From positions 1 through 22,341 of the IMG/VR virus record IMGVR_UViG_3300023257_000136: a stretch of DNA of 22,341 nt. The stretch is one strand, 5' to 3'. Source of the stretch: a virus. Each line of letters begins with the position of its first letter. Positions within the stretch are counted from its first letter, which is position 1. The notes beneath the pieces were generated by a model. The model had not been told where the DNA came from. It worked only from the letters and a program-made list of their open reading frames with translations, and searched no databases. Positions 6,509-22,341 of the stretch are shown in pieces. Both the position numbers and the translations under genes were made by a program.

Positions 6509-7117
6509 ATGGCAGAAACTAAATTAAGTAATCAGCAAAAAGATTTAGAATTATTTCATGAACATAATTGTTTAATCAACGATAGATTAATCTATTTTGG
6601 GAGTACTGATTATGAAGAAGATGATACCGGTGAATCAGGAGTAGATTTTAAATCAGCTGCTAAAGTAATTAAAAATTTAGTTTATTTAGATTTAAAGAAA
6701 AAAAGTAATATAAAATTATATTTTAATAGCCCTGGAGGGGATTGGCATCATGGTATGGCTATATATGATTGTATACTTGGGCTAAGAAGTGAAGTAAAAT
6801 TTGTAGGATTTGGTTATGTAAGAAGTATGGGAAGTATAATAATGCAAGCATGTAATCAAAGATTATTAACTCCAAATTGTAGAGTAATGATTCATGATGG
6901 CACTTCTGGACATTATGGTACACCTAAGACTACGGAAGCTTGGGCAGAAGAATCAAAAGCTTCTAGAAAAAGAATGTACGAAATATATTATTCAAATATG
7001 CTATGTAAAAATTCAAAGATAACATTAAAGAAAATAGAAGATATGTGTAATTATGATTGTATAATGTCAGCAGAAAAAGCAGTAGAGATTGGATTAGCAG
7101 ATAAAGTATTGAAATGA
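6509..7117 (+). CDS. ClpP-like serine protease (S14 family)
   Basis: A 202-residue protein with the ClpP/crotonase fold signature. SPGG is at 74-77 (oxyanion region), the nucleophile is S106 in YVRSMGS, the histidine is H129 in RVMIHDG, and the acid is most likely D183 in YDCIMSAEKAVEIGLADKVL, which matches the ClpP MSAxEAxxxGLID ending. The triad therefore looks intact. In phages, ClpP-like proteases often act as prohead proteases that trim scaffold and capsid protein. Here the gene lies about 3.3 kb before the terminase rather than between portal and capsid genes, so a role in host or phage protein turnover is also possible. It follows motif copy 3; ribosome-binding site AGAGGGA. Confidence 0.88.
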   Translation: MAETKLSNQQKDLELFHEHNCLINDRLIYFGSTDYEEDDTGESGVDFKSAAKVIKNLVYLDLKKKSNIKLYFNSPGGDWHHGMAIYDCILGLRSEVKFVGFGYVRSMGSIIMQACNQRLLTPNCRVMIHDGTSGHYGTPKTTEAWAEESKASRKRMYEIYYSNMLCKNSKITLKKIEDMCNYDCIMSAEKAVEIGLADKVLK

Positions 7118-10440: not shown

Positions 10441-13074
10441 ATGAAAAATATAAAATCGCTTATTTTTGATGAGTGTTTAAGAACTATTAGTAATGAAGCA
10501 ATGTCAGTTGATGATATTTGGGAAGAGAAACCAGTAACTCCAGAGGTATTTTTTAAGGAGTGGTTGCCTCCTTACTTATCAGAACCTCAATTGGATGTAT
10601 TTAATGTATTATTTAAAGAGGGCAAATGGAGTTATGAATACTTAGAATACCTTTTATTTTGGGGGGAAGGGTGTGTAGCTGGCAGTACTCTTTTAAGGGA
10701 TGAGGAAACCGGGAGAGAGTATACTATAAAAGAATTAGCTGATAATAAGAAAAGAATTACAGTTAAATCTATTAAAGTAGTTATTAATAATAAAGAATAT
10801 ATTTGTAATAAAGATGGAAGAAAAAGAAAAGTAGGAAAGAAATACAAAATAGTCAATCAAAAAACGAATATTCCATTTAAAAAAGGGAATACAAAATTAT
10901 ATAAAGTTAAAACCAAATCAGGTAAAGAAGTAATAGTAAGTGCAGAACATAAGTTTTATACAAAAGATGGTTGGAAAACATTGGGTTCTTTGAAAATAGG
11001 TAATAAGATAGCCATTAATTCTACTACGGTATTAGATAAAAAGATTGAAAAAGAGAGAAGACAGAAAATTTCTAACACTATGATAAAATTTGATGAGATA
11101 GAATCTATTGAGTGTATTGGGGAAGAAGATTTTTATGATTTAGAGATTCCAGAAACTCATAATTATATAGCACAAGATATAGTACATCATAATAGCGGTA
11201 AAGATTTTATTTGTGTGAGGATTATTTTATACACAGCTTATTTTCTGATGTGTTTAAGGTCTCCTCAAAAGTATTTTGAATTTGCAGAAACCGAACCAAT
11301 AGATTTAGTAAATGTTTCATTATCAGGACATCATGCTAAAGATGTTTTCTTTGTTAGATTAACTCAAGCAATTAAGAGTGTAATGAATCCTAATACCGGC
11401 AACAATTGGTTTAAAGAAAAGGGAATGGATTTAAGGGACGGCAAAGATATTCAAACTACAAAAGTAACTTTTAAAAAAAATATAGTTGCTCACAGTTTAA
11501 ATAGTTTGAGATATACTGGTGAAGGAATGAATATTCTTTTAGCAGTATTTGATGAAGTGGGAGAGTTTAAGCCTAATAAAGCAAAAGAGCTCTATGAAAA
11601 CTTATGGTTTACAGCTGAATCAAGATGGGGCACTAAAGACATTGCCCCATTTAGAATCATACTAATCTCTTATTTAAGAGATGAAAATGATTTTATGAAT
11701 TATAGGTGGGAATCGACTAAAGAAGATAAAAAAGTTTTTAGAAGTAAAAAATGTACTTGGGAAGTTAGACCTGGGAAAACAAGAGAAGATTATAAAGGTG
11801 CTTTTGAAAAGAATCCAGAAGAAGCATTAAGAAGACTTGCAAATGAATTATCTGGAACAATGGGAAATTCATTTATTACTCATAGAGCAAAGATAAGAGA
11901 ACATGTTAATAAGAATAGTATGTCACCATTTATTGATAACCCATTTAGAACTCACGACTTAAATGAATTACAATTAGCCGCTTGGTTTAAGCCTTATTCA
12001 GTTAAAGAATTAGATGACCTAATAAATAGAACAGATTTAAATGAAGAACAAAAGAAATTAAGAAATAAATTAAAGATTCAACACGGAGATGCAAAGTATA
12101 ATATACATATAGATTTAGCTAAGGGGAAAGACGGAGGAGATTGTGCAGGATTTGCTATGTGTCATTCTTATAGGTTAAATCCTTACATAGATGAGTCTCA
12201 AATTAATGTTTATTTAGATTTAGTAATGCAGTTAAAGGGTAAAGACGGAAAAGAAATTGACTTTGAAAGAATTCGTCAATTCATTTATAAGTTACAAGAT
12301 AGAGGATTCACAATTGCTAAGGTAACACTTGATGGATATCAGTGTTTATCAGGAGATACTAAAATACAATTAGTAAACGGTTCAACAGTTCCTATAAAAG
12401 ATTTAGTAGGTAAAGAACCCTGGATTTATAGTTATACTGGGAAAGAAATAATTCCAATACAGGGAAGTAATATAAGAAAAACAGGTAAAAAAGTTCCTTT
12501 ATATGAAATAACTTTAGATAATAATAAAAAAATTAAGGCAACAAAAGAACATCCTTTTATGTTACGAAGTGGGGAGTATAGAGAGTTAAAGAATTTAAAA
12601 ATTGGGGATTCTTTAATGCCATTGTATTTAAAACATAAAGTTATTTCAGTTAAATTTATTGGTTATGAAGATGTGTACGATATGGAAGTTCCAAAGTATC
12701 ATAATTTTGCTTTAGAGGCTGGAGTATTTGTACATAATTCAGTAGACATGATTCAATTATTAAATAAGAGGGAAATAGTATCAGAGCAATTGTCAGTAGA
12801 TAAAAATGATGCTGGATATCAAACGCTAAAAGAATTAATCTATATGCGTAGACTAGATTATTATGAATATAAAGTATTATTAAGGGAATTAGAAGAATTA
12901 AAAAGAATAGAAAATGGGAAGATAGACCACCCAGACATATCAAGAAAAAGAGCCTTAGAAGAAAATGATGAAAGAGGTTCAAAGGATACAGCAGATGCAG
13001 TAGCAGGTTGTTGTATGTCTGCACTTGAGGAAACAGATAACGATTCAGGAGACTGGGTTGGGGTGGAACTTTAG
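10441..13074 (+). CDS. terL: Terminase large subunit with two inteins
   Basis: The DNA-packaging motor: an ATPase that pumps DNA into the prohead and a nuclease that cuts concatemers. The frame encodes 877 residues; removing two inteins (78-251 and 635-766) leaves 571, a normal TerL size. Walker A is rebuilt across intein 1 (WGEG then SGKD). Walker B is ILLAVFDE with D371 and E372. The RNase H-like nuclease shows D558 (HIDLAKGKDGGD), D631 (TLDGYQ, directly before intein 2) and D849/D852 (KDTADAVAG). ATG 10441 has no visible Shine-Dalgarno sequence, only an AT run, which is unusual here. No small terminase is recognisable; one of the small upstream genes may fill that role. The portal gene follows. 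Confidence 0.95.
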   Translation: MKNIKSLIFDECLRTISNEAMSVDDIWEEKPVTPEVFFKEWLPPYLSEPQLDVFNVLFKEGKWSYEYLEYLLFWGEGCVAGSTLLRDEETGREYTIKELADNKKRITVKSIKVVINNKEYICNKDGRKRKVGKKYKIVNQKTNIPFKKGNTKLYKVKTKSGKEVIVSAEHKFYTKDGWKTLGSLKIGNKIAINSTTVLDKKIEKERRQKISNTMIKFDEIESIECIGEEDFYDLEIPETHNYIAQDIVHHNSGKDFICVRIILYTAYFLMCLRSPQKYFEFAETEPIDLVNVSLSGHHAKDVFFVRLTQAIKSVMNPNTGNNWFKEKGMDLRDGKDIQTTKVTFKKNIVAHSLNSLRYTGEGMNILLAVFDEVGEFKPNKAKELYENLWFTAESRWGTKDIAPFRIILISYLRDENDFMNYRWESTKEDKKVFRSKKCTWEVRPGKTREDYKGAFEKNPEEALRRLANELSGTMGNSFITHRAKIREHVNKNSMSPFIDNPFRTHDLNELQLAAWFKPYSVKELDDLINRTDLNEEQKKLRNKLKIQHGDAKYNIHIDLAKGKDGGDCAGFAMCHSYRLNPYIDESQINVYLDLVMQLKGKDGKEIDFERIRQFIYKLQDRGFTIAKVTLDGYQCLSGDTKIQLVNGSTVPIKDLVGKEPWIYSYTGKEIIPIQGSNIRKTGKKVPLYEITLDNNKKIKATKEHPFMLRSGEYRELKNLKIGDSLMPLYLKHKVISVKFIGYEDVYDMEVPKYHNFALEAGVFVHNSVDMIQLLNKREIVSEQLSVDKNDAGYQTLKELIYMRRLDYYEYKVLLRELEELKRIENGKIDHPDISRKRALEENDERGSKDTADAVAGCCMSALEETDNDSGDWVGVEL
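10672..11193 (+). other. Mini-intein in TerL Walker A motif
   Basis: Residues 78-251 of the precursor (174 aa). It begins with C78 (CVAGSTLL, block A) and ends HHN before S252, the canonical Asn and nucleophile pair. Block B is VSAEHKFYT, block F is EDFYDLEIPETHNYIAQD. No LAGLIDADG, HNH or other nuclease motif is visible, so it is a splicing-only element. It splits the P-loop between GEG and SGKD, so the unspliced protein cannot bind ATP normally. Confidence 0.93.
12343..12738 (+). other. Mini-intein in TerL nuclease domain
   Basis: Residues 635-766 (132 aa), close to the minimal intein size. It starts CLSGDTKIQL (block A), with block B ATKEHPFML, block F EDVYDMEVPKYHNFALEAG, and end FVHN before S767. 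It sits three residues after D631, a catalytic metal ligand of the nuclease, in the conserved DGYQ/SVD junction. No nuclease domain is present. Confidence 0.95.
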
Positions 13075-13084
13075 GAGGTTATAA

Positions 13085-14662
13085 ATGGCTTGGTTTAATT
13101 TTGAAAGAAAAAAAGAAGTTGAAGCATTACCTGTGAGCTTAAGTAAAGAGGTAAAAACAAAAAGCTCTAAAGGAGAAATAAATGAAACTACTTCTTATGG
13201 GATAGGCTATGGAAATGATTATGCAAATAGGATACTACAATATCAAGGATTAACTATCAGTGAAATGTGGAAATGTTATACAAGTAATCCTTGGGTACGT
13301 TCTTGTGTTGATAAGATACTTAAAGAAGTTGTTAAATATAAAATAAATGTTAAGCCTAAAGACCCAGAAAATGTATCTAAAGAAACTGCTCAACATGTAG
13401 ATAGTGTAAAAGCTCTATTAGCAAACCCAAACGATAAAGTGGAATCATTTGATAACATTAGAAGAAAATACTTAAAAGATATCTTAATATATGATTCCGG
13501 TGCATTAGAGATTGTTAATTCAAATGCAAGTAATGTAAAGCAATTAAGACAAAATGTAGCTAAGGCTGTAAAGCAATTAACTAAATTAACAATTACAGGT
13601 AAGGGAATAACAGATACTAAATTATCTACTTTTTATAATAATAAAATAGCTGGATTAAATAAAAACCTAATTGAATTAAAAGATAAGTTAAAAGCTGAAA
13701 TTGAAAAATCTAGTACAAGTGAACCAGTAGAACTATATGATGTATCAGGAACAAACATAAAATTAAATGTAGACATACATGGAGATTTTAAAGACCCAAA
13801 TGCAGCATATTATTTCATTGATAACAACAGTAAAAAAGTAGCTGAGTTTGCAGTAAATGAATTGATTTATTTTATAGCTAATCCAACTGCAGGAAGTATT
13901 TACGGAGTATCACCAATTGAAACCTTATATAATATTATACAAGCTGATAATCAAGCCGCAGCTTTAAATAGAAGAAGATTAGATTCAGATGGTATTATTT
14001 CGGGTGTGTTAAGCTTCCCTGGTATGGGAACCAATAAATTAAGAGCAAATCAGACATTTTGGAAACAAAGAGCTAAGAAAAAAGGAGCATCATTGGTTGT
14101 TACTTCTTCTAAAGATGTTCAATTTATACGAGTTGCTGAGAGCCATCAGGAAATGCAATTTATGGAATACCAAAAATGGACGCTTACTCAAATTATGGCT
14201 GTGTATGGATTGCAACCAATTGTATTAGGAGTTATAGATGGAACAACTGGAAAATTAAATAGTTCAGAACAAAGACAACAGTTTAAATCAGATGCCATTT
14301 TACCTCTATTAAGTTTAGAGGCTCATCATTTAACAGATGTATTAATCAGTCAAGCCTTTGGATTTGATGATGTAGAAATATATCATGAAGAACCGGACCA
14401 AGAACTAACTAAAGTTGAAAATACAGACGTAGCAGATAAAATGGGCAAGTTGGGAGTAATCACTATTAATGAGGCTAGAGAAATGATAGGATTAGATTCA
14501 ATAGACGAAGGAGATATATTAATTCTAACTTCTAATTTAAAAGGTGTTGTAGACGATATAAGTAAATCTCAAAGACAAGATAAATTACAAGAAATAAAAG
14601 ATAGAATAAACGAATTAATAGAACCGAAACCTAGTGTTGAGATAAATACGGAAATAGAATAA
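13085..14662 (+). CDS. Portal protein (HK97/PF04860-like)
   Basis: The dodecameric ring at the unique capsid vertex through which DNA enters and leaves. The protein has 525 residues. Family signatures are PWVRSCVDKI (69-78), YDSGALEIV (136-144), FIANPTAGSIYGVSPIETLYN (263-283), then SSEQRQQFKSDAILPLLSLEAHH, and near the end KMGKLGVITINEAREMIGLDSIDEGD. Residues about 150-210 form a helical insertion rich in Lys/Glu within the usual fold. It begins 10 bases after TerL with AGGAGG, and its stop is immediately followed by the ATG of the MuF gene (TAAATG). The gene order TerL, portal, MuF confirms the call. Confidence 0.93.
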   Translation: MAWFNFERKKEVEALPVSLSKEVKTKSSKGEINETTSYGIGYGNDYANRILQYQGLTISEMWKCYTSNPWVRSCVDKILKEVVKYKINVKPKDPENVSKETAQHVDSVKALLANPNDKVESFDNIRRKYLKDILIYDSGALEIVNSNASNVKQLRQNVAKAVKQLTKLTITGKGITDTKLSTFYNNKIAGLNKNLIELKDKLKAEIEKSSTSEPVELYDVSGTNIKLNVDIHGDFKDPNAAYYFIDNNSKKVAEFAVNELIYFIANPTAGSIYGVSPIETLYNIIQADNQAAALNRRRLDSDGIISGVLSFPGMGTNKLRANQTFWKQRAKKKGASLVVTSSKDVQFIRVAESHQEMQFMEYQKWTLTQIMAVYGLQPIVLGVIDGTTGKLNSSEQRQQFKSDAILPLLSLEAHHLTDVLISQAFGFDDVEIYHEEPDQELTKVENTDVADKMGKLGVITINEAREMIGLDSIDEGDILILTSNLKGVVDDISKSQRQDKLQEIKDRINELIEPKPSVEINTEIE

Positions 14663-16435
14663 ATGCTATCATTTAAGAATTTTGTAAACTTATTTAAAGT
14701 TGAGAATTTAGTTGATAAGCACATTGATGAATTAGAATTCTCTAATAAAGACTTTTTCTCCAAAGTAGTTACCATAAGAAAAGAAATGGCTAGTAACCTT
14801 ATTAACGATAATGAAGTCGTTAATGAAGGAATCCAATTCGTTAATGAACTTGTAAGAAGTACGGTTGAGATTGCAGTTGATTTACTTTTAAACTTACAAG
14901 ACATAATATTACAAAAAAGATTTGTTGCTAAAGCAGTTGGGGCAGCAGACTTTGAAAAATTTGCTGGTGCTTTAGATAGAGAATTAGAAATAGCTGCAAT
15001 CCATAATAACAATAGAATGTGGACTACATTTGGAACTAGTTATGGGCAAGGGGTTGAAAGAGGTTTAGGAGATGTTGGAATATCTTCAGAGGGAATTGAT
15101 TGGCAGAAATATAGAGAAACAGCAGCATATAAAGAAACAGCATATCAAAGTATGCGACATATATCAAGTGGATTAAGTACTAGAATTAAAGAAGTAGTTG
15201 CTGCAGGAGTTGCTGAGGGCAATGGTGTTTATGATATAGCTAGAAGATTAAGGGAAATAAAATTAGGACCAAAAATTGTAGATGTAGCTCCAAAATTAAT
15301 AGAAGGAAAAGTTGTTAGAAGAGGTTACTCATATATAATACCTGAAAAAAGATATGCTAATATGATAGCTAGAACAGAATCTTCAAGAGCAGTTAATCAA
15401 GGAAGATTAGATGCATATAATAGAACAGGGATAAAAAATGTAGAATGGTTAACAGCAGGAGATGAGCGAGTTTGTTCGAATTGTATGGATTTGGATGGTC
15501 GAGTATTTCCTGTTAATAATATGCCAATGATTCCTTTACATATGGCTTGTAGATGTACAGTTGTAGTTTCTGGAAAAATAACAAGTGGGGGTATCTCAAA
15601 AGCTAATTTACAAAGTGGGATAGCAGATGATTTTTCTAGAAAGTATTTTGCACATGGATGTTCACAGCTTTCTAAAAAAGAATTTGAAGTAGAAGTTAGT
15701 AATTTTGCAACTGGCTATACAGAACTTGATTCTTTAGGAAGAAAGAAAGTTTTAAGAAATATTGTAGGAGAATTTAAAAAGGTAGGTTGCCAATTAAAGA
15801 TGGACCCTACAAAATTGGATGATTTAGGATATGCATTTCATTTAAGTAAGTCAATTACAAAATTAGATGGTAAGACATTACAATTAATTCAAGCAGCTAA
15901 AGGACCAAAACAAACGTTATTATATATTGGAGAAAATAAAGGGGTTAAGGCTAAGTGGGTTAGTAATATTTTTAAAACAGAAGATATATCTAACCAATTT
16001 TTTGCTGGTCTTTCTCCTAAACATAAAAATGTTTTTGGTGCTACATTTTCTTCTAATATGACATTTAAAGATGGAAGACACATTAGAAATTTTTTTAAAC
16101 TTGGTGAACAAAGAAATTTAATTAGGGTAGAAAATTTTAAACATCTTATGGCTACTACTAATGTTGATTTAAATTTACAATTAGAACATGCTCTTGTTCA
16201 TGAGTTTGGGCATACAATTGAGAATAATATATTGGTATTAAAAAAAGATATAGTTAAAAAATTATATAAAGATTCAAAGAAATTTCATTATGGCACTGAT
16301 TTTGTTACACCATATTCTTATGAAACATACAAAGAATTTTTTTGTGAGAGTTTTTCTGCTATGAAAACAAAAAGTAATCTTGTAGCTAAGAGAGTATCTG
16401 AAGCTTTAGAAAAAATATTATCAAGTATGGAATAA
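14663..16435 (+). CDS. MuF minor head protein fused to a lethal-factor-like zinc metallopeptidase domain
   Basis: A 590-residue protein. Residues about 110-300 are a phage head morphogenesis (MuF, PF04233) domain: ARTESSRAVNQGRLDAYNRTG, then C271-x2-C274 (CSNCMDLDG) and PLHMACRC (291-298), the usual cysteine/histidine cluster. About 300-470 is a linker region of unknown type. The C-terminus has HEFGH at 513-517 and EFFCESFSAM at 558-567. In anthrax lethal factor, HEFGH is followed by a Tyr seven residues before the metal-binding Glu of EFFAEAF; here Y551 and E558 match that spacing. MuF proteins are packaged in or near the portal, and in some phages carry toxin domains. So this is likely a virion-delivered or host-directed protease; target unknown. 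No ribosome-binding site is obvious; the start directly abuts the portal stop. Confidence 0.87.
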   Translation: MLSFKNFVNLFKVENLVDKHIDELEFSNKDFFSKVVTIRKEMASNLINDNEVVNEGIQFVNELVRSTVEIAVDLLLNLQDIILQKRFVAKAVGAADFEKFAGALDRELEIAAIHNNNRMWTTFGTSYGQGVERGLGDVGISSEGIDWQKYRETAAYKETAYQSMRHISSGLSTRIKEVVAAGVAEGNGVYDIARRLREIKLGPKIVDVAPKLIEGKVVRRGYSYIIPEKRYANMIARTESSRAVNQGRLDAYNRTGIKNVEWLTAGDERVCSNCMDLDGRVFPVNNMPMIPLHMACRCTVVVSGKITSGGISKANLQSGIADDFSRKYFAHGCSQLSKKEFEVEVSNFATGYTELDSLGRKKVLRNIVGEFKKVGCQLKMDPTKLDDLGYAFHLSKSITKLDGKTLQLIQAAKGPKQTLLYIGENKGVKAKWVSNIFKTEDISNQFFAGLSPKHKNVFGATFSSNMTFKDGRHIRNFFKLGEQRNLIRVENFKHLMATTNVDLNLQLEHALVHEFGHTIENNILVLKKDIVKKLYKDSKKFHYGTDFVTPYSYETYKEFFCESFSAMKTKSNLVAKRVSEALEKILSSME

Positions 16436-16450
16436 ATAATATATAATATA
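16435..16450 (+). promoter_or_regulatory. Repeated AATAATATATAATATA motif, copy 5
   Basis: Exact copy starting at the last base of the MuF stop codon, with TATAAT at 16442-16447. It ends 18 bases before ATG 16469, with AAGGAG between. TTATCA (16418-16423) is a weak -35 candidate with an 18-base spacer. Confidence 0.55.
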
Positions 16451-16468: not shown

Positions 16469-16753
16469 ATGAAGGCTAAAATTGTATATTTAAGACAAGA
16501 GCTAATAATTGAGGCAAAGAATAATAAACTAATTAATGCTACTGGACCTCAAATATTAAAAGAAAAAATAGTACCTTTATTTAAAAAGGCTATTTATATA
16601 CATACTAATACTGATAATTCTACTGATATAATTGCACCAGATAGAAATATATCGAAAAAAATATCTCCAGGTAAGGAAGACTTTATTATTGCGGTGTTAA
16701 TAGATAGAGTAAAGAATGAATTAGGTGCTAGTTTCGAAATATTAGAAGATTAA
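16469..16753 (+). CDS. Hypothetical protein after the MuF gene
   Basis: A 94-residue protein with AAGGAG upstream, placed 18 bases after motif copy 5, so probably transcribed separately from the MuF gene. Opening helix (MKAKIVYLRQELIIEAKNNKL) and a closing alpha/beta part (EDFIIAVLIDRVKNELGASFEIL). No family is recognised. Its position right after a possible effector raises the thought of an immunity or chaperone partner, but nothing in the sequence supports that directly. Confidence 0.6.
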   Translation: MKAKIVYLRQELIIEAKNNKLINATGPQILKEKIVPLFKKAIYIHTNTDNSTDIIAPDRNISKKISPGKEDFIIAVLIDRVKNELGASFEILED

Positions 16754-16780: not shown

Positions 16781-16993
16781 ATGAAGGTAGTGGAAAAAAA
16801 TCAACCTTTTCCTTATGCTTTACAATGTATGATTTGTGGAGGAGAGGTTAAGAGGATAATTATAACTCTATATGAAGTTAACGACGTAAGAAGATTGACA
16901 ACTCATCGTTGCCAAAATTGTTTGCGTCTGTTTAACAAGTTGGATGATGTAGATATATTAATTCAAAATCAAACTAAGGAACATGAAGAATGA
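16781..16993 (+). CDS. Small zinc-ribbon protein
   Basis: A 70-residue protein with two CxxC knuckles: C16/C19 (QCMICGG) and C44/C47 (HRCQNC), the spacing of a zinc ribbon. The strand between them (EVKRIIITLYEVNDVRRL) fits the ribbon fold. It has AAGG upstream and an ATGA overlap with the next gene. Possible nucleic-acid or protein-binding adaptor; no family named. Confidence 0.7.
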   Translation: MKVVEKNQPFPYALQCMICGGEVKRIIITLYEVNDVRRLTTHRCQNCLRLFNKLDDVDILIQNQTKEHEE

Positions 16994-17265: not shown

Positions 17266-20200
17266 ATGGCAAAATTTAAAGAGATAATTAAACGTGATGG
17301 TAGGAAGGTAAAATTCAGTTCAAATAAACTAACAAAGTGTTTGAAGCAAGCAGGTGAAGTAACAAATGAATTTTCAGATAAGATAGCAGAAAAATTAACA
17401 ATAAGAATAATTAATTTAGTATCTCAAGTTGTAGAAGATAGATTGCCGACAGTTGAAGATGTACAAGATTGTATGGAAGAAGTATTACTAAGTTCAACCT
17501 ATAAAGAAACAGCAAAAGCATGCATTATATATAGAGAGCAGCATAATCAATTAAGGGAAATAACTTCCGAATTTAATTCGGGGATTATAAAAGACTATTT
17601 AAAAAAGAATGATTGGAAAGTAAATGAGAATAGTAATCAGGGCTTCTCATTACAAGGATTAAATAATTACGTATCATCAGAGGTAACAAAGACATATTGG
17701 CTAAATAAAATTTATCCAAAAGAAATAAGGGATGCACACAACAGCGGAGAATTACATATACATGATTTATCATATTTAAGTGCTTATTGTGTTTCTTCTC
17801 AAGAACATATTATTACTTGTAATGGGAGTAAAGTTGCAAATTCCATTAAGGTTGGAGATAAACTGATTGGTTTTGACGGAACAGGGTTTAAGCCAACTAA
17901 AGTTGTTAAAGTTTTTTCAAGGGAAGTTGAGGATATTTTAGAAATAAAATTTGAATATTTTGGTAAGAATAAGAAACTACGAGTTACTGGAGAGCACCCT
18001 TTTTTAACGACTACAGGATGGAAAGAAGCAAAATTATTAAATGTTGGGGATGAAATATTAACAGCAACCCCTAAAGACCTTTTTTCTTTCCGCTGTGAAT
18101 ATGGTTGTTATAAAGATAGAAAAGAATTATTAAGTATGAAAGAAGCCCGTGTAGGGTTGAATATAAAAAGAAAGGATAAATTTTTTGTAGAAAATTGGAG
18201 GAAGTCTTGTAGAAAAGCACAAAAAAAATTACGACAGGATAAAAAATTATTATGGAAAGACAAGACTTGGGTTGAGTCAATGATGCAAAGCCGCAGAGAT
18301 AGTGGTATGTATCAAGAAACAAGTGAACGCATGATAAAAAATAACTCAATGAAAAATAAAAGAGTTTCTAAAAAAGCTATTAAGACCAGAACAAGTAGGG
18401 GTACAGGATTTTTTGAGACCAATAACCCAATGAAAGACCCAATTAAGAAAAAAGAGATTATGAAGAAGGCAATGTCCAGGCATTTACCATCAAATCCTGA
18501 AAAAAGAGTTATTAAAATAATAAAAGAAAATAGATTGCCTATTTATTATGTAGGAAAAGCGGACTTATTTATCGGAAGATATAATCCGGATTTTGTGGAT
18601 GAATCCGGAAATAAGTTAATTGAAGTTTTTACAACTAAAATGTTTGACAAAAATAGAACCCCTGATATGCTAAAAAAGAAAGAGTATTATGCTGGGAGAG
18701 GGAAAAAATGTTTACTTTTAAACACTGATATTCTTTCGGATAATCAAATTAGTAAAAAGTTAAGGTCTTTTATAAGTAATGGAGCAAAGGTTTTAAAAAT
18801 TAAAAAACTTTTTAGTAAACAACAAGGTAAGCGAAAATATAAATTTAAAGTTGTTAATTTTCATTGTGCGCCCCACAATAATTTTGTTGTTAATGGTTTA
18901 ATTACCCATAATTGTGTTGGGTGGGATTTATATGATTTATTATTAAGCGGATTTAAGGGGGTAGTTACAAAGACAGAGAGTAAGCCAGCAAAGCATTTTG
19001 CAACATGTTTAGGACAATTAAATAATTTCTTTTTTACATTAGCAGGTGAAGCGGCAGGAGCTCAGGCATTTTCAAATTTAGATACATTATTAGCACCATT
19101 TATAAGATATGATAAGTTAAGTTATAAAGAAGTAAAGCAATATTTACAAGAGTTTATTTTTAATTTAAATGTACCAACAAGGGTAGGTTTTCAAGCTCCA
19201 TTTTCTAACATAACATTAGACCTGGAGCCTTCTCCCAATTATGTGGATAAATATATAGTAATAGGGGGAGAATTACAGAAAGAGAAGTATAAAGATTTTC
19301 AAGAAGAAATGAACATGTTTAATAAAGCTTTTTTTGAGGTTTTATTAGAGGGAGATGCAACAGGAAAGGTATTTACTTTCCCGATACCAACATATAGCAT
19401 AACAAAAGATTTTGATTGGGACAATCCAATGTTAGAAGGTTTGTGGGAAATGACTTCCAAATACGGAATTCCATATTTTTGTTTAGAAAAATCTACTTTA
19501 GTATATACTAATAATGGTGTGAAGCCAATAGGAAATATAACTTTAGATGATATGGTCATTGGAAGTGATGGTAAATATAAGAAAATAAAAAATATATTCC
19601 CCGTTATTCATAAAAAAGGTATAAAAGTAAATACAAAATTAGGAAATATTGTTAGTGCGGAAAATCATCAATTCCCAACAAAAGATGGAGTAAAAAAAAT
19701 AAAAGACATTACACTATCAGATAAATTTATTGTAGATAATACATATCTTGAATTTGAAAATGGGTTTAAAATTAATAATTTTACAAAAGAATATTTTGAT
19801 TTATTTGATGAAAAAAATAATAAAATAAAATTAGAAAATTTAAAATCTATGCCTATATTTTGTAAATTAAAACCTAAAATAAAAACAAAAATACAAAAAT
19901 TAAAACCATTTAAATATGTCAGCAATAGATTTCAGACAACATTAAAAAATATAAAGATACCCCTTGATTTAAATGAAGATATTTGTGAGTTAATAGGACA
20001 ATTAATAGGAGATGGTTCTTTTAGAAAAAATGGAGTAAGCTTAACTAATGCGGATAGAGAAATAATTGATTTTTTTGTAACTAAAATGAAATCTATCTTT
20101 GGTGTTACATCAACAATATCAAAGGCAGGAGAATCAAAAATATGTAAAAGTATTGGTATTAATTCTGTAATTTTAGTTGGGTTTTTAAAATATATTGGTG

Positions 20201-22341
20201 TAAAAAGGGCTAATTGTTGGAATAAAGAAATCCCAACAATATTATATAATAGAACAGAAAAAGAAATAGGTGCTTTTTTACGCGGCTTATTTGATACAGA
20301 TGGTTCTTGTTTAAAAAATAAATCGGGGAAAACAATAATAAGTATTACACTAATGAATCTTAAATTAATTTCTCAAGTTTCAGAATTACTATCTATGTTA
20401 AATATTGTGGGTAGATTAGAAAATAATCATATTGTAATAACAGGCAATAGAAATATAGAACTATTTTCTAAAAAAATAGGGTTTAGAATTAAAAGAAAAA
20501 AAAATAATATTAATATTTTAAAAGAATTTAATAAGCCCTCAAGAGGATACAAAATTGTTTCAAAGATAGAAGCTATTAATGGAAAATATGGAGAACATTA
20601 TAAATATAAAAAAGAAAATTATTTTAGAGTTAAAAGATACGAATCTAATTGTTTTTATTTATTTTGTAAAAAATTAGAGAAAACAACCAGTGAGCAAGAA
20701 ATATCTTCTATTTCAAAAATTAATACTGAAATAGAAACTATCGATATTGAGATAGAAAGTTCCGATAATTTATTTTTATTATTTAATAATATTTTTACTC
20801 ATAATAGCAACTTTGTTAATTCAGATATGAAGCCAGAAGATTCTAGGTCAATGTGTTGTTTTAATGGCAAACATGAAATAAACTTTAAAATAAATGATTC
20901 TTTTAAAATTATGCCATTACAAAAGATTATTTCAAGATATAAAGAGATAGAGGTATTACAAAATGGAGAATGGGTAAAAGCAAAAACAATAAAAATAGAT
21001 TATGATAAACCTTTTATAAAAGTAATATTGAGGAATGGGTTAAGTTATAATATGACAGACAATCATATTAATCCAACTCAAAGGGGTAATATTTTTACTA
21101 AAGATTTGGTTATAGGAGATAAATTAAAATATTCTCATTCTCATTTTGAATATGAGGGAGTTGGTTCTTATAATTTAGGTAAATTTATAGGATATTATTT
21201 AGCTGAAGGCTCAAGTATGGGAACTTTTATACAATTTAGTATAGGAGAAACAGAAACAAATATAGCTGATTTTATTAGTAAAATATCTAGTGAATATTTT
21301 GGATGCAACACCTCAATTATGAAAAATACGGGTAAATCATTGACTGTAGCTCCACAGTCAGATGTAATAAAAATGTTTATTGATAAACATATATCAGGCA
21401 AAGCAACAGATAAACATTTAAAAAATTACTATTCTTTTAATCACGATATGTTAAGAGGTATTTGGGATGGTTGGTTTGAAGGGGATGGAGGTAAAAGTGA
21501 AGTATATACATCTTCAAAACAATTAGCTTATCAAATGATAAACATTGCTAGAATTTTAGGAATAAAAATAAATTTAAGAACTACAGAAAACGAAGAAATA
21601 TTTGCTTTTGGAAAAACATATATTAGGAATTTATATACTTTGCATATTTGTAAGGAAAAAGATAATGGAGGAAGAATATATGATAATGGTTTTGTAGAAA
21701 TCATAGATATTAAAAAAGTTTCTAATAGAAACAAAGTTGCTTTTTGTGTTGAAGTAGCTACTGATGCTCCATATTTTGAATTGTCAGATGGATTATATAC
21801 TCACAATTGTAGATTAAGATTAGACACAAAACAATTAGAAAAAAGAGGGGGAGGATTATTTGGAGCTAATCCATTAACAGGAAGCATCGGAGTAGTCACG
21901 ATTAATTTACCTCGAATAGCATATTTAAGTACTAATAAAAAAGAGTTCTTTGACAAATTAGAAAGACTAATGTTTCTTGCAAAAGAAAGTTTAGAGATTA
22001 AAAGAAAAATAGTTGAGAAGTTCACTGAAAATGACCTGTATCCCTATACTAAGTTTTATATTAGAAAGGTAAAGGAAAGATTCGGAGAATATTGGAAGAA
22101 TCATTTCTCAACCATTGGCTTAATAGGAATGAATGAAGTTTGCTTGAACTTTTTAAAAGAAGATATTGGTAGTAAAAATGGAGTTAAATTTACAGAAGAA
22201 ACATTAGTCTTTATGAGAAATAAATTGGTAGAATTTCAAAAAGATACTGGAAATAATTATAATTTAGAAGCAACTCCGGCAGAATCAACAGCATATAAAT
22301 TAGCTAAAGGAGATAAAGAAGAATTTGAAGATATAATAGTA
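17266..22341 (+). CDS. nrdD: Anaerobic ribonucleotide reductase with three inteins, 3' partial
   Basis: Class III reductase: makes deoxynucleotides (classically from NTPs) using a glycyl radical formed by the activase NrdG. Open to the window end: 1692 codons, of which 558 are extein. Residues 1 to about 95 form an ATP-cone (KEIIKRDGRKVKFSSNKLTKCL). The catalytic barrel reads HIHDLSYLSAY then CVGWDLYDLLLSGFKG, LNVPTRVGFQAPFSNITLD, IPYF then SNFVNSDMKPEDSRSMC then CRLRLD, and GGGLFGANPLTGSIGVVTINLPRI. The glycyl-radical C-terminus lies beyond the window. ATG 17266 is chosen because ATG 17262 stops after five codons. Inteins lie at precursor residues 175-549, 739-1180 and 1198-1514. An NrdG gene would be expected downstream. 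Confidence 0.96.
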   Translation, partial: MAKFKEIIKRDGRKVKFSSNKLTKCLKQAGEVTNEFSDKIAEKLTIRIINLVSQVVEDRLPTVEDVQDCMEEVLLSSTYKETAKACIIYREQHNQLREITSEFNSGIIKDYLKKNDWKVNENSNQGFSLQGLNNYVSSEVTKTYWLNKIYPKEIRDAHNSGELHIHDLSYLSAYCVSSQEHIITCNGSKVANSIKVGDKLIGFDGTGFKPTKVVKVFSREVEDILEIKFEYFGKNKKLRVTGEHPFLTTTGWKEAKLLNVGDEILTATPKDLFSFRCEYGCYKDRKELLSMKEARVGLNIKRKDKFFVENWRKSCRKAQKKLRQDKKLLWKDKTWVESMMQSRRDSGMYQETSERMIKNNSMKNKRVSKKAIKTRTSRGTGFFETNNPMKDPIKKKEIMKKAMSRHLPSNPEKRVIKIIKENRLPIYYVGKADLFIGRYNPDFVDESGNKLIEVFTTKMFDKNRTPDMLKKKEYYAGRGKKCLLLNTDILSDNQISKKLRSFISNGAKVLKIKKLFSKQQGKRKYKFKVVNFHCAPHNNFVVNGLITHNCVGWDLYDLLLSGFKGVVTKTESKPAKHFATCLGQLNNFFFTLAGEAAGAQAFSNLDTLLAPFIRYDKLSYKEVKQYLQEFIFNLNVPTRVGFQAPFSNITLDLEPSPNYVDKYIVIGGELQKEKYKDFQEEMNMFNKAFFEVLLEGDATGKVFTFPIPTYSITKDFDWDNPMLEGLWEMTSKYGIPYFCLEKSTLVYTNNGVKPIGNITLDDMVIGSDGKYKKIKNIFPVIHKKGIKVNTKLGNIVSAENHQFPTKDGVKKIKDITLSDKFIVDNTYLEFENGFKINNFTKEYFDLFDEKNNKIKLENLKSMPIFCKLKPKIKTKIQKLKPFKYVSNRFQTTLKNIKIPLDLNEDICELIGQLIGDGSFRKNGVSLTNADREIIDFFVTKMKSIFGVTSTISKAGESKICKSIGINSVILVGFLKYIGVKRANCWNKEIPTILYNRTEKEIGAFLRGLFDTDGSCLKNKSGKTIISITLMNLKLISQVSELLSMLNIVGRLENNHIVITGNRNIELFSKKIGFRIKRKKNNINILKEFNKPSRGYKIVSKIEAINGKYGEHYKYKKENYFRVKRYESNCFYLFCKKLEKTTSEQEISSISKINTEIETIDIEIESSDNLFLLFNNIFTHNSNFVNSDMKPEDSRSMCCFNGKHEINFKINDSFKIMPLQKIISRYKEIEVLQNGEWVKAKTIKIDYDKPFIKVILRNGLSYNMTDNHINPTQRGNIFTKDLVIGDKLKYSHSHFEYEGVGSYNLGKFIGYYLAEGSSMGTFIQFSIGETETNIADFISKISSEYFGCNTSIMKNTGKSLTVAPQSDVIKMFIDKHISGKATDKHLKNYYSFNHDMLRGIWDGWFEGDGGKSEVYTSSKQLAYQMINIARILGIKINLRTTENEEIFAFGKTYIRNLYTLHICKEKDNGGRIYDNGFVEIIDIKKVSNRNKVAFCVEVATDAPYFELSDGLYTHNCRLRLDTKQLEKRGGGLFGANPLTGSIGVVTINLPRIAYLSTNKKEFFDKLERLMFLAKESLEIKRKIVEKFTENDLYPYTKFYIRKVKERFGEYWKNHFSTIGLIGMNEVCLNFLKEDIGSKNGVKFTEETLVFMRNKLVEFQKDTGNNYNLEATPAESTAYKLAKGDKEEFEDIIV
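17788..18912 (+). mobile_element. NrdD intein 1, with Vsr/PD-(D/E)XK-like nuclease
   Basis: Precursor residues 175-549 (375 aa). Splicing ends: C175 (CVSSQEHIITCNG) and ITHN before C550; block B VTGEHPFLT, block F VVNFHCAPHNNFVV. There is no LAGLIDADG. Instead it has two tandem NUMOD3-like stretches (NNSMKNKRVSKKAIKTRT and NNPMKDPIKKKEIMKK, from residue 386), then PEKRVIKIIKENRLP and YNPDFVDESGNKLIEVF, where P441-D442 and E453 fit a PD-(D/E)XK core of the Vsr-like homing nucleases. It sits just before a cysteine that aligns with an active-site cysteine of NrdD. Confidence 0.9.
19480..20805 (+). mobile_element. NrdD intein 2, LAGLIDADG homing endonuclease
   Basis: Precursor residues 739-1180 (442 aa). 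It starts CLEKSTLVYT, block B is VSAENHQFPT, and it ends IFTHN before S1181. The two LAGLIDADG helices are LIGQLIGDG (909-917) and FLRGLFDTDG (1004-1013), each with its catalytic acid. A full-size bifunctional intein; the coding sequence is more AT-rich than the exteins around it. It splits the conserved PYF/SNF junction. Confidence 0.95.
20857..21807 (+). mobile_element. NrdD intein 3, LAGLIDADG homing endonuclease
   Basis: Precursor residues 1198-1514 (317 aa). It begins CFNGKHEINF and ends YTHN before C1515 (CRLRLD). Block B reads MTDNHINPT. The LAGLIDADG helices are LGKFIGYYLAEG (1304-1315) and LRGIWDGWFEGDG (1396-1408). Only 17 extein residues separate it from intein 2. The +1 cysteine C1515 aligns with the MxCR cysteine that carries the thiyl radical in NrdD, so splicing chemistry and catalysis share one residue (inference from alignment). 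Confidence 0.94.

What the first reader, a model, noticed from the sequence alone, without database searches (positions are those of the whole stretch)
15560..16435. Head protein fused to an anthrax-lethal-factor-like metallopeptidase
The MuF domain is followed by about 170 residues of unknown sequence and a zincin with HEFGH (513-517) and EFFCESF (558-564). The Tyr-to-Glu spacing (Y551, E558) equals that of lethal factor (SYGRTNEAEFFAEAF, Tyr728 and Glu735). MuF proteins with C-terminal toxin domains are known as phage polymorphic toxins; here the toxin is of the lethal-factor/Pro-Pro-endopeptidase type. It could be injected with DNA to cut a host protein, act against rival bacteria, or process capsid proteins.
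Basis: partly seen in the sequence, partly recalled or inferred. Interest (0 to 1): 0.75.

Follow-up and report, generated by a model that had tools for sequence, protein, structure and literature searches.

The report
Phage head protein carrying a protease
A phage from an uncultured source has a minor head protein whose end is an optional, swappable zinc-protease-like domain, distantly resembling that of anthrax lethal factor, which the virus may carry into the bacterium with its DNA; the general idea is known, this example is new.

Summary
Window 14663-16435 encodes an intact 590-residue protein: MuF head domain (Pfam E 4.8e-18), a linker, then a C-terminal zincin-like domain with HEFGH at 513-517 and Y551/E558. 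Residues 440-590 match Peptidase_Mx1 (E 1e-5) and ATLF (E 5.3e-5), both below curated cut-offs. A two-sequence profile of the end finds only lethal-factor chains in the PDB (7 of 7 matches, best E 5.8e-4). The one diverged homologue (L014/L017; tail 27% identical) keeps H513, E514, H517, Y551 and E558 but alone matches no zincin family. Structure prediction failed (pLDDT 35), so the fold rests on sequence alone.

The tail is a mosaic module: of six related phages with a complete MuF end, two carry it, in different clades. DNA similarity to three relatives stops at the same base, 15582. MuF proteins with C-terminal metallopeptidases are already described (20% of 191 MuF toxins; PMC5576092). Best reading: a virion-borne protease injected to cut a host protein. 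A toxin-immunity pair with the downstream 94-aa gene is possible, but that gene persists in one tail-less phage. No integrase was found in eight fragmentary records, so the phage may be virulent.

The parts
14663..15583 (+). MuF minor head protein core, residues 1-307
   Evidence: PF04233 E 4.8e-18 at residues 174-300; 88%, 73% and 70% identical cores in L009, L010, L013
15584..15979 (+). linker part of the tail, residues 308-439; partly conserved in L014
   Evidence: Alignment A2; no family at E 0.05 or below confined to this stretch (best phrog_5414 E 0.07)
15980..16432 (+). zincin-like metallopeptidase domain, residues 440-590
   Evidence: Peptidase_Mx1 E 1e-5, ATLF E 5.3e-5, both below curated cut-offs; TIGR04549 E 1.5e-4 with the whole tail, 21.1 bits against a cut-off of 75
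16199..16213 (+). HEFGH (H513, E514, H517)
   Evidence: HELGH in L014
16313..16354 (+). Y551 to F564 with E558, predicted third zinc ligand
   Evidence: Y551 and E558 kept in L014 at the same distance
15582..15583 (.). 5' boundary of the module: DNA similarity to L009, L027 and L013 ends here in all three
   Evidence: blastn; flanking letters compared
16433..16449 (+). AT-rich promoter-like element overlapping the MuF stop codon; recurs in the window
   Evidence: 9 matches with up to 3 mismatches, 3.3 expected, 1 of 100 shuffles reached 9; pattern taken from this site
16469..16753 (+). 94-aa gene next to the tail; possible immunity or other small phage protein
   Evidence: Homologues in L014 and L015; AF2 pLDDT 65.6
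13085..14662 (+). portal protein, upstream neighbour
   Evidence: PF04860 E 3.3e-33
10441..13074 (+). terminase large subunit interrupted by inteins
   Evidence: Intein_splicing E 5.9e-34; phrog_17415 terminase E 8.4e-16

Best explanation
The protein is a minor head (MuF) protein with an optional zinc-protease cargo domain fused to its C-terminus. The MuF core builds it into the head near the portal in a few copies (inferred from the MuF family). The zincin, with H513/H517/E558 binding zinc, E514 activating water and Y551 assisting (inferred from motif and homology), travels in with the DNA and cuts one or a few host proteins early in infection, for example a defence or regulatory protein. Shown: the fusion, a predicted active site conserved in two diverged tails, and presence or absence of the tail as a module between close relatives. 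Inferred: zinc binding, catalysis, packaging, injection and a host target.
For: MuF domain and position directly behind portal and terminase. Zincin profile matches and PDB profile matches. Five of five key residues kept in a tail that is otherwise only 27% identical. Tail present in 2 of 6 lineages with complete MuF ends, in separate clades; L014 (tail) and L015 (none) have 86% identical cores, so related phages do without it, as expected of an accessory effector. No match to integrase, resolvase, Peptidase_S24 or rve families in 8 of 8 records examined (three of the eight are the same virus, and the contig of L014 was not among them). Injected MuF cargo and polyvalent metallopeptidases acting on host proteins are proposed in PMC5576092 (passages) and PMC5512222 (section 8).
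Against: No trustworthy structure model (pLDDT 35.2). Family scores are below the curated cut-offs, and L014 alone gives no zincin match. Only two independent tails are known here. All records may be fragments, so lysogeny genes may be out of view. A small gene follows both tails, as in toxin-immunity pairs. No data on packaging, activity or target.
Confidence: 0.5

Rival explanations
1. MuF polymorphic toxin with cognate immunity: the zincin is an antibacterial toxin and the 94-aa gene just downstream (16469-16753) protects the producing cell.
For: The small ORF follows both known tails, with a start-stop overlap in L014, and was not found in three of four tail-less lineages. In PMC5576092 89.4% of 191 MuF toxin genes but 25.5% of 952 short ones are followed by an ORF under 150 aa (passage). 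Bxa and Apk2 have such pairs (PMC11699363, PMC12226406, passages).
Against: L015 has the 94-aa gene but no tail, though immunity genes without a toxin are known (passage in PMC11699363). The model of the 94-aa protein (pLDDT 65.6) has as best viral match an uncharacterised protein of Bacillus phage Shanette, E 2.3e-3, none at 0.001, which would fit a general phage protein. No lysogeny gene seen, so no evidence for a long-lived producer cell.
Confidence: 0.2
2. Processing protease: the zincin cuts the MuF protein itself or other virion proteins, during head maturation or at ejection.
For: Zincin domains of polyvalent phage proteins are thought to self-process in some cases (PMC5512222 section 8); the zincin is joined through a linker that could be cut.
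Against: Relatives with intact portal and MuF genes lack it. A relative has a standard S78 prohead protease beside a capsid gene; the window itself has only a weak S78 match at 1487-1666, below cut-off, and a ClpP-like or head-maturation-protease-like gene at 6509-7117.
Confidence: 0.15
3. Catalytically dead or decaying zincin kept for binding, or a non-protease domain with a chance motif.
For: Below-cut-off scores, no zincin match for L014 alone, no usable model.
Against: Motif plus Y-6x-E arises in 0.1% of shuffles; all five key residues are retained at 27% identity; frame intact in both.
Confidence: 0.1

Closest known systems
MuF polymorphic toxins with C-terminal metallopeptidase domains (Jamet et al. 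2017, PMC5576092)
   Same: MuF core in the head module with a C-terminal extension; short and extended forms; a small ORF follows; 20% of 191 MuF toxins carry a metallopeptidase (section 7)
   Different: Reported from temperate phages and prophages, none with a known toxin domain in virulent phages, although the association of toxin genes with temperate phages was itself not significant (p = 0.055) (passages); this group shows no lysogeny gene in 8 possibly fragmentary records. Which metallopeptidase families were meant could not be read (supplement not available).
Anthrax lethal factor-like metallopeptidase toxin domains (Pfam ATLF; Tox-ALFMetallopeptidase in PMC3482391)
   Same: HExxH with a Tyr and a third-ligand Glu 7 residues apart; the only PDB family matched by the two-tail profiles
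   Different: Score below cut-off; listed in PMC3482391 for PVC and T2SS delivery, not MuF (passage)
Peptidase_Mx1 (PF15890) and TIGR04549 HExxH lipoproteins
   Same: Lowest E-values of the family matches, over a longer stretch (residues 440-572)
   Different: Both below cut-off; by their titles a putative peptidase and a substrate-import lipoprotein, whereas this tail is fused to a head protein and the protein has no strongly hydrophobic stretch
Zincin-like MPTase domains of phage polyvalent proteins (PMC5512222)
   Same: Metallopeptidase in a phage protein thought to be injected (section 8)
   Different: Polyvalent proteins join 2 to 15 domains (abstract, listing); this is a single cargo domain on MuF

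Membership tests
MuF minor head proteins | MuF domain over curated cut-off | tested here: met
   66.4 bits against 29.6
MuF minor head proteins | Gene lies in the head/packaging module | tested here: met
   Directly behind portal and terminase
MuF polymorphic toxins | C-terminal domain varies between related MuF proteins | tested here: met
   Tail present in 2 of 6 lineages with a complete end, sharp boundary; only presence/absence seen, no second tail type
MuF polymorphic toxins | Cognate immunity gene downstream | tested here: inconclusive
   94-aa gene with both tails, also in one of four tail-less lineages
MuF polymorphic toxins | Carried by a temperate phage or prophage | tested here: inconclusive
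   No match to four lysogeny- or transposition-related families in 8 of 8 records, all possibly fragments; no relative of the tail in GTDB genome contigs by two pattern scans
MuF polymorphic toxins | Toxicity to bacteria | not testable with these tools
   Needs an expression assay
Zincin metallopeptidases | HExxH plus distal Glu, conserved in homologues | tested here: met
   Window and L014; only two independent tails
Zincin metallopeptidases | Zincin fold | tested here: inconclusive
   AF2 pLDDT 35.2; not searched further
Lethal factor family (ATLF) | Score over Pfam cut-off | tested here: not met
   23.4 bits at best against 27.4
Lethal factor family (ATLF) | Tyr-to-Glu spacing of 7 around third ligand | tested here: met
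   shared spacing alone does not define membership
Pro-Pro endopeptidases | Sequence match to solved members | tested here: not met
   No chain so named among matches at E 10 or below in three PDB searches with the window tail or its profiles; that solved members exist is recalled, not checked
Peptidase_Mx1 | Score over Pfam cut-off | tested here: not met
   25.5 bits against 25.6 for residues 440-590, a marginal miss

The most novel reading that the evidence does not exclude
A strictly virulent phage group switches a lethal-factor-like protease on and off its head protein and injects it to destroy a bacterial target such as a defence protein: a MuF cargo used as a take-over weapon without any immunity partner, contrary to the reported restriction of MuF toxins to temperate phages.
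Probability: 0.3. Interest if true: 0.7.

Novelty: new member of a known kind. Interest (0 to 1): 0.42.

Why it matters
If right, it links head-protein cargo to protease effectors in a phage that looks virulent, and gives a natural comparison: closely related head proteins with and without the protease (L014 and L015 cores are 86% identical). That would make the question of what MuF toxins are for, competition or infection, directly testable.

Tried and rejected
Structure of the tail: AF2 with two sequences gave pLDDT 35.2; not used for any fold search. More homologues were sought to deepen the alignment: eight scans of viral contigs with tail, MuF or portal queries, two of genome contigs, tblastn of the phage collection with both tails and with the whole protein. 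Only one independent tail homologue (L014/L017) was found; two searches gave one match each, at E 9 and 5, discarded; one search gave 271 records, none covering 80% of the query, and the 30 listed match the MuF part or, for H3 and H4, run on to residue 354. PHROG head families phrog_4728 (residues 169-525 of the window protein) and phrog_115 (172-528 of L014) align beyond the MuF domain, which hints at similar extended head proteins elsewhere; not followed up.

The 94-aa gene as a known protein: no Pfam match for the window or L014 copies and only E 0.095 for L015, best PHROG E 0.091 for L014, no PADLOC match, PDB sequence best E 0.5, no phage tblastn match with the L014 copy. Foldseek against PDB: best E 2.2; against viral models none at E 0.001, two at 2.3e-3 and 3.9e-3. 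I tried to place the Shanette gene in its genome by recalled accession numbers and failed; a related Herelleviridae portal region (BM15) gave no significant match (best E 0.73).

Rows left out of the count of six lineages: L009 (contig ends 28 bases after the boundary); L011, L012, L028, L029 and L034 (MuF runs off the contig); L016 and L018 (no MuF match); L025 and L031 (distant). Copies counted once: L001, L002, L004, L005, L007, L008, L019-L022, L026, L032, L033 with the window; L006 is L009; L017 with L014; L023 and L030 with L024; L027 with L010.

Full report
What is there. Window 14663-16435 (+) is one open frame of 590 codons behind portal (13085-14662) and an intein-bearing terminase (10441-13074). 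Residues 174-300 are a MuF domain (E 4.8e-18). The record is a 22.3-kb virus record, possibly a fragment; two other IMG/VR contigs hold the same virus at 99.96-99.99% DNA identity over 11.3 and 15.1 kb, and the tail is 100% identical in both.

Is the protease domain real? For the whole protein Pfam gives Peptidase_Mx1 E 7.7e-5 and ATLF E 0.0018; for residues 440-590 E 1e-5 and 5.3e-5. Both stay under the curated cut-offs, Mx1 by 0.1 bit. NCBIfam gives TIGR04549 E 1.5e-4, far below its cut-off of 75 bits. In the PDB the single tail matches lethal factor at E 0.11, with two unrelated chains at E 2; the two-tail profile matches it at 0.0024 as its only match; the profile of the last 110 residues matches seven distinct sequences up to E 10, all lethal factor, best 5.8e-4. 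Against this, the homologous tail of L014 on its own matches no zincin in Pfam, NCBIfam or PDB. The HExxH plus Y-6x-E pattern, chosen after the fact, appears in 0.1% of shuffled tails. The L014 tail is 27% identical, yet H513, E514, H517, Y551 and E558 are all kept. I judge a zincin likely (about 0.9), an active protease about 0.8, and a closer kinship to lethal factor than to Mx1 about even.

The tail is a module. Scans with tail, MuF and portal gave a small group of related phages. Counting each virus once and only those with a complete MuF end, two of six carry the tail: the window and L014; L010, L013, L015 and L024 do not. On a tree of eight MuF cores, window and L014 fall in two separate clades: the L014/L015/L024 clade has support 100/100, the window pairs with L009 at 98/97, the L014-L015 pair has 85/88; one inner fork is open; L014 and L015 cores are 86% identical. 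DNA similarity of the window with L009, L027 (same contig as L010) and L013 stops at base 15582 in all three, and resumes in L013 at 16984. Between lie the tail, the 94-aa gene, and most of a 70-aa gene (16781-16993) that by eye has a counterpart in L013, so the truly extra part is the tail plus the 94-aa gene. On this tree presence and absence need at least two changes; gain or loss is not shown.

The neighbour. The 94-aa gene (16469-16753) has homologues in L014, where its start overlaps the MuF stop, and in L015, which has no tail; a profile search found it in 3 of 13 loci searched, the third being a copy of the window's virus. That is 2 of 2 tail-bearing and 1 of 4 tail-less lineages. It may be an immunity gene, with L015 an orphan, or an unrelated small phage protein. 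Its model is of middling confidence (pLDDT 65.6); its best viral fold match is a Bacillus phage protein of unknown function (E 2.3e-3), and nothing in the PDB is better than E 2.2. I cannot decide, and lean to the second.

Lifestyle. Searches for phage integrase, resolvase, Peptidase_S24 and rve families gave 0 of 8 records each, with controls ringing in 14, 10, 10 and 6 of 14 genomes. Three of the eight records are the same virus and the L014 contig was not among them. A 42-kb relative has family A DNA polymerase, a primase-helicase, a sliding clamp, RecA, an SbcC-like ATPase, a capsid protein and an S78 prohead protease, among the nine of its proteins that were scanned for Pfam families. This fits a virulent phage, but the records may be fragments. 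Jamet et al. write that MuF toxins were found exclusively in temperate phages and prophages and that virulent phages had none with a known toxin domain, while the association of toxin genes with temperate phages was not significant in their phage set (p = 0.055) (PMC5576092, passages; section 7 read in full).

How it most likely works. The MuF core places the protein in the head, the linker holds the zincin, and the zincin enters the cell with the DNA to cut a host protein. The same authors suggest that moderately toxic MuF cargo such as peptidases could guide the lysis-lysogeny decision or resist cellular defences (passage). Polyvalent phage metallopeptidases are discussed as self-processing or as effectors (PMC5512222 section 8). 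Packaging, injection, activity and target are inferred, not shown.

What is known. A MuF protein with a C-terminal metallopeptidase is a described kind (20% of 191). Lethal-factor-like toxin domains are listed in PMC3482391 for PVC and T2SS delivery and not MuF (table passage; section 17 read). Full-text searches: MuF with phage and lethal factor found two papers, both cited here and read only in passages and single sections; phage with Pro-Pro endopeptidase, anthrax lethal factor and homolog found one, on Leptospira, not read; ATLF with phage found four, none about phage head proteins by title, not read; Peptidase_Mx1 with phage none; MuF with metallopeptidase and phage 13, most seen as listing only; a five-term search on injected virion metalloproteases found seven, seen as listing only. 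This does not exclude that the unread supplement of PMC5576092 already includes this type.

Noticed in passing
L015:3518-5755; L023:1108-3177; L024:4965-7034: MuF genes of relatives carry an intein at or next to the conserved HVACRCT motif, about ten codons before the point where the tail joins in the window (family match for L015; L023 and L024 by eye); neither of these two lineages has the tail.
   Followed up: partly
window 17266-22341: Anaerobic ribonucleotide reductase gene with apparently three inteins: the uninterrupted L027 gene matches only the pieces 17272-17792, 18911-19482, 20805-20858 and 21807-22341.
   Followed up: partly
window 10441-13074: Terminase with apparently two inteins; by eye, the terminases of L024 and L018 also hold intein-like stretches.
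   Followed up: no
window 2138, 4415, 6475, 8391, 16433: An AT-rich element (AATAATATATAATAT core) recurs on the + strand at or just after ORF ends with 0-2 mismatches; 9 matches with up to 3 mismatches against 3.3 expected; perhaps a phage promoter.
   Followed up: partly
window 6509-7117: ClpP-like or head-maturation-protease-like gene upstream of the terminase and portal (phrog_94, E 1.4e-25).
   Followed up: no
window 13085-14662: Portal protein is distantly related to portals of Herelleviridae such as Bacillus phage BM15 (23.7% identity).
   Followed up: partly
L035:10112-16529: The 42-kb relative has a run of genes whose starts look like sugar-nucleotide, methyltransferase and glycosyl-type enzymes; read by eye only, no family search.
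   Followed up: no
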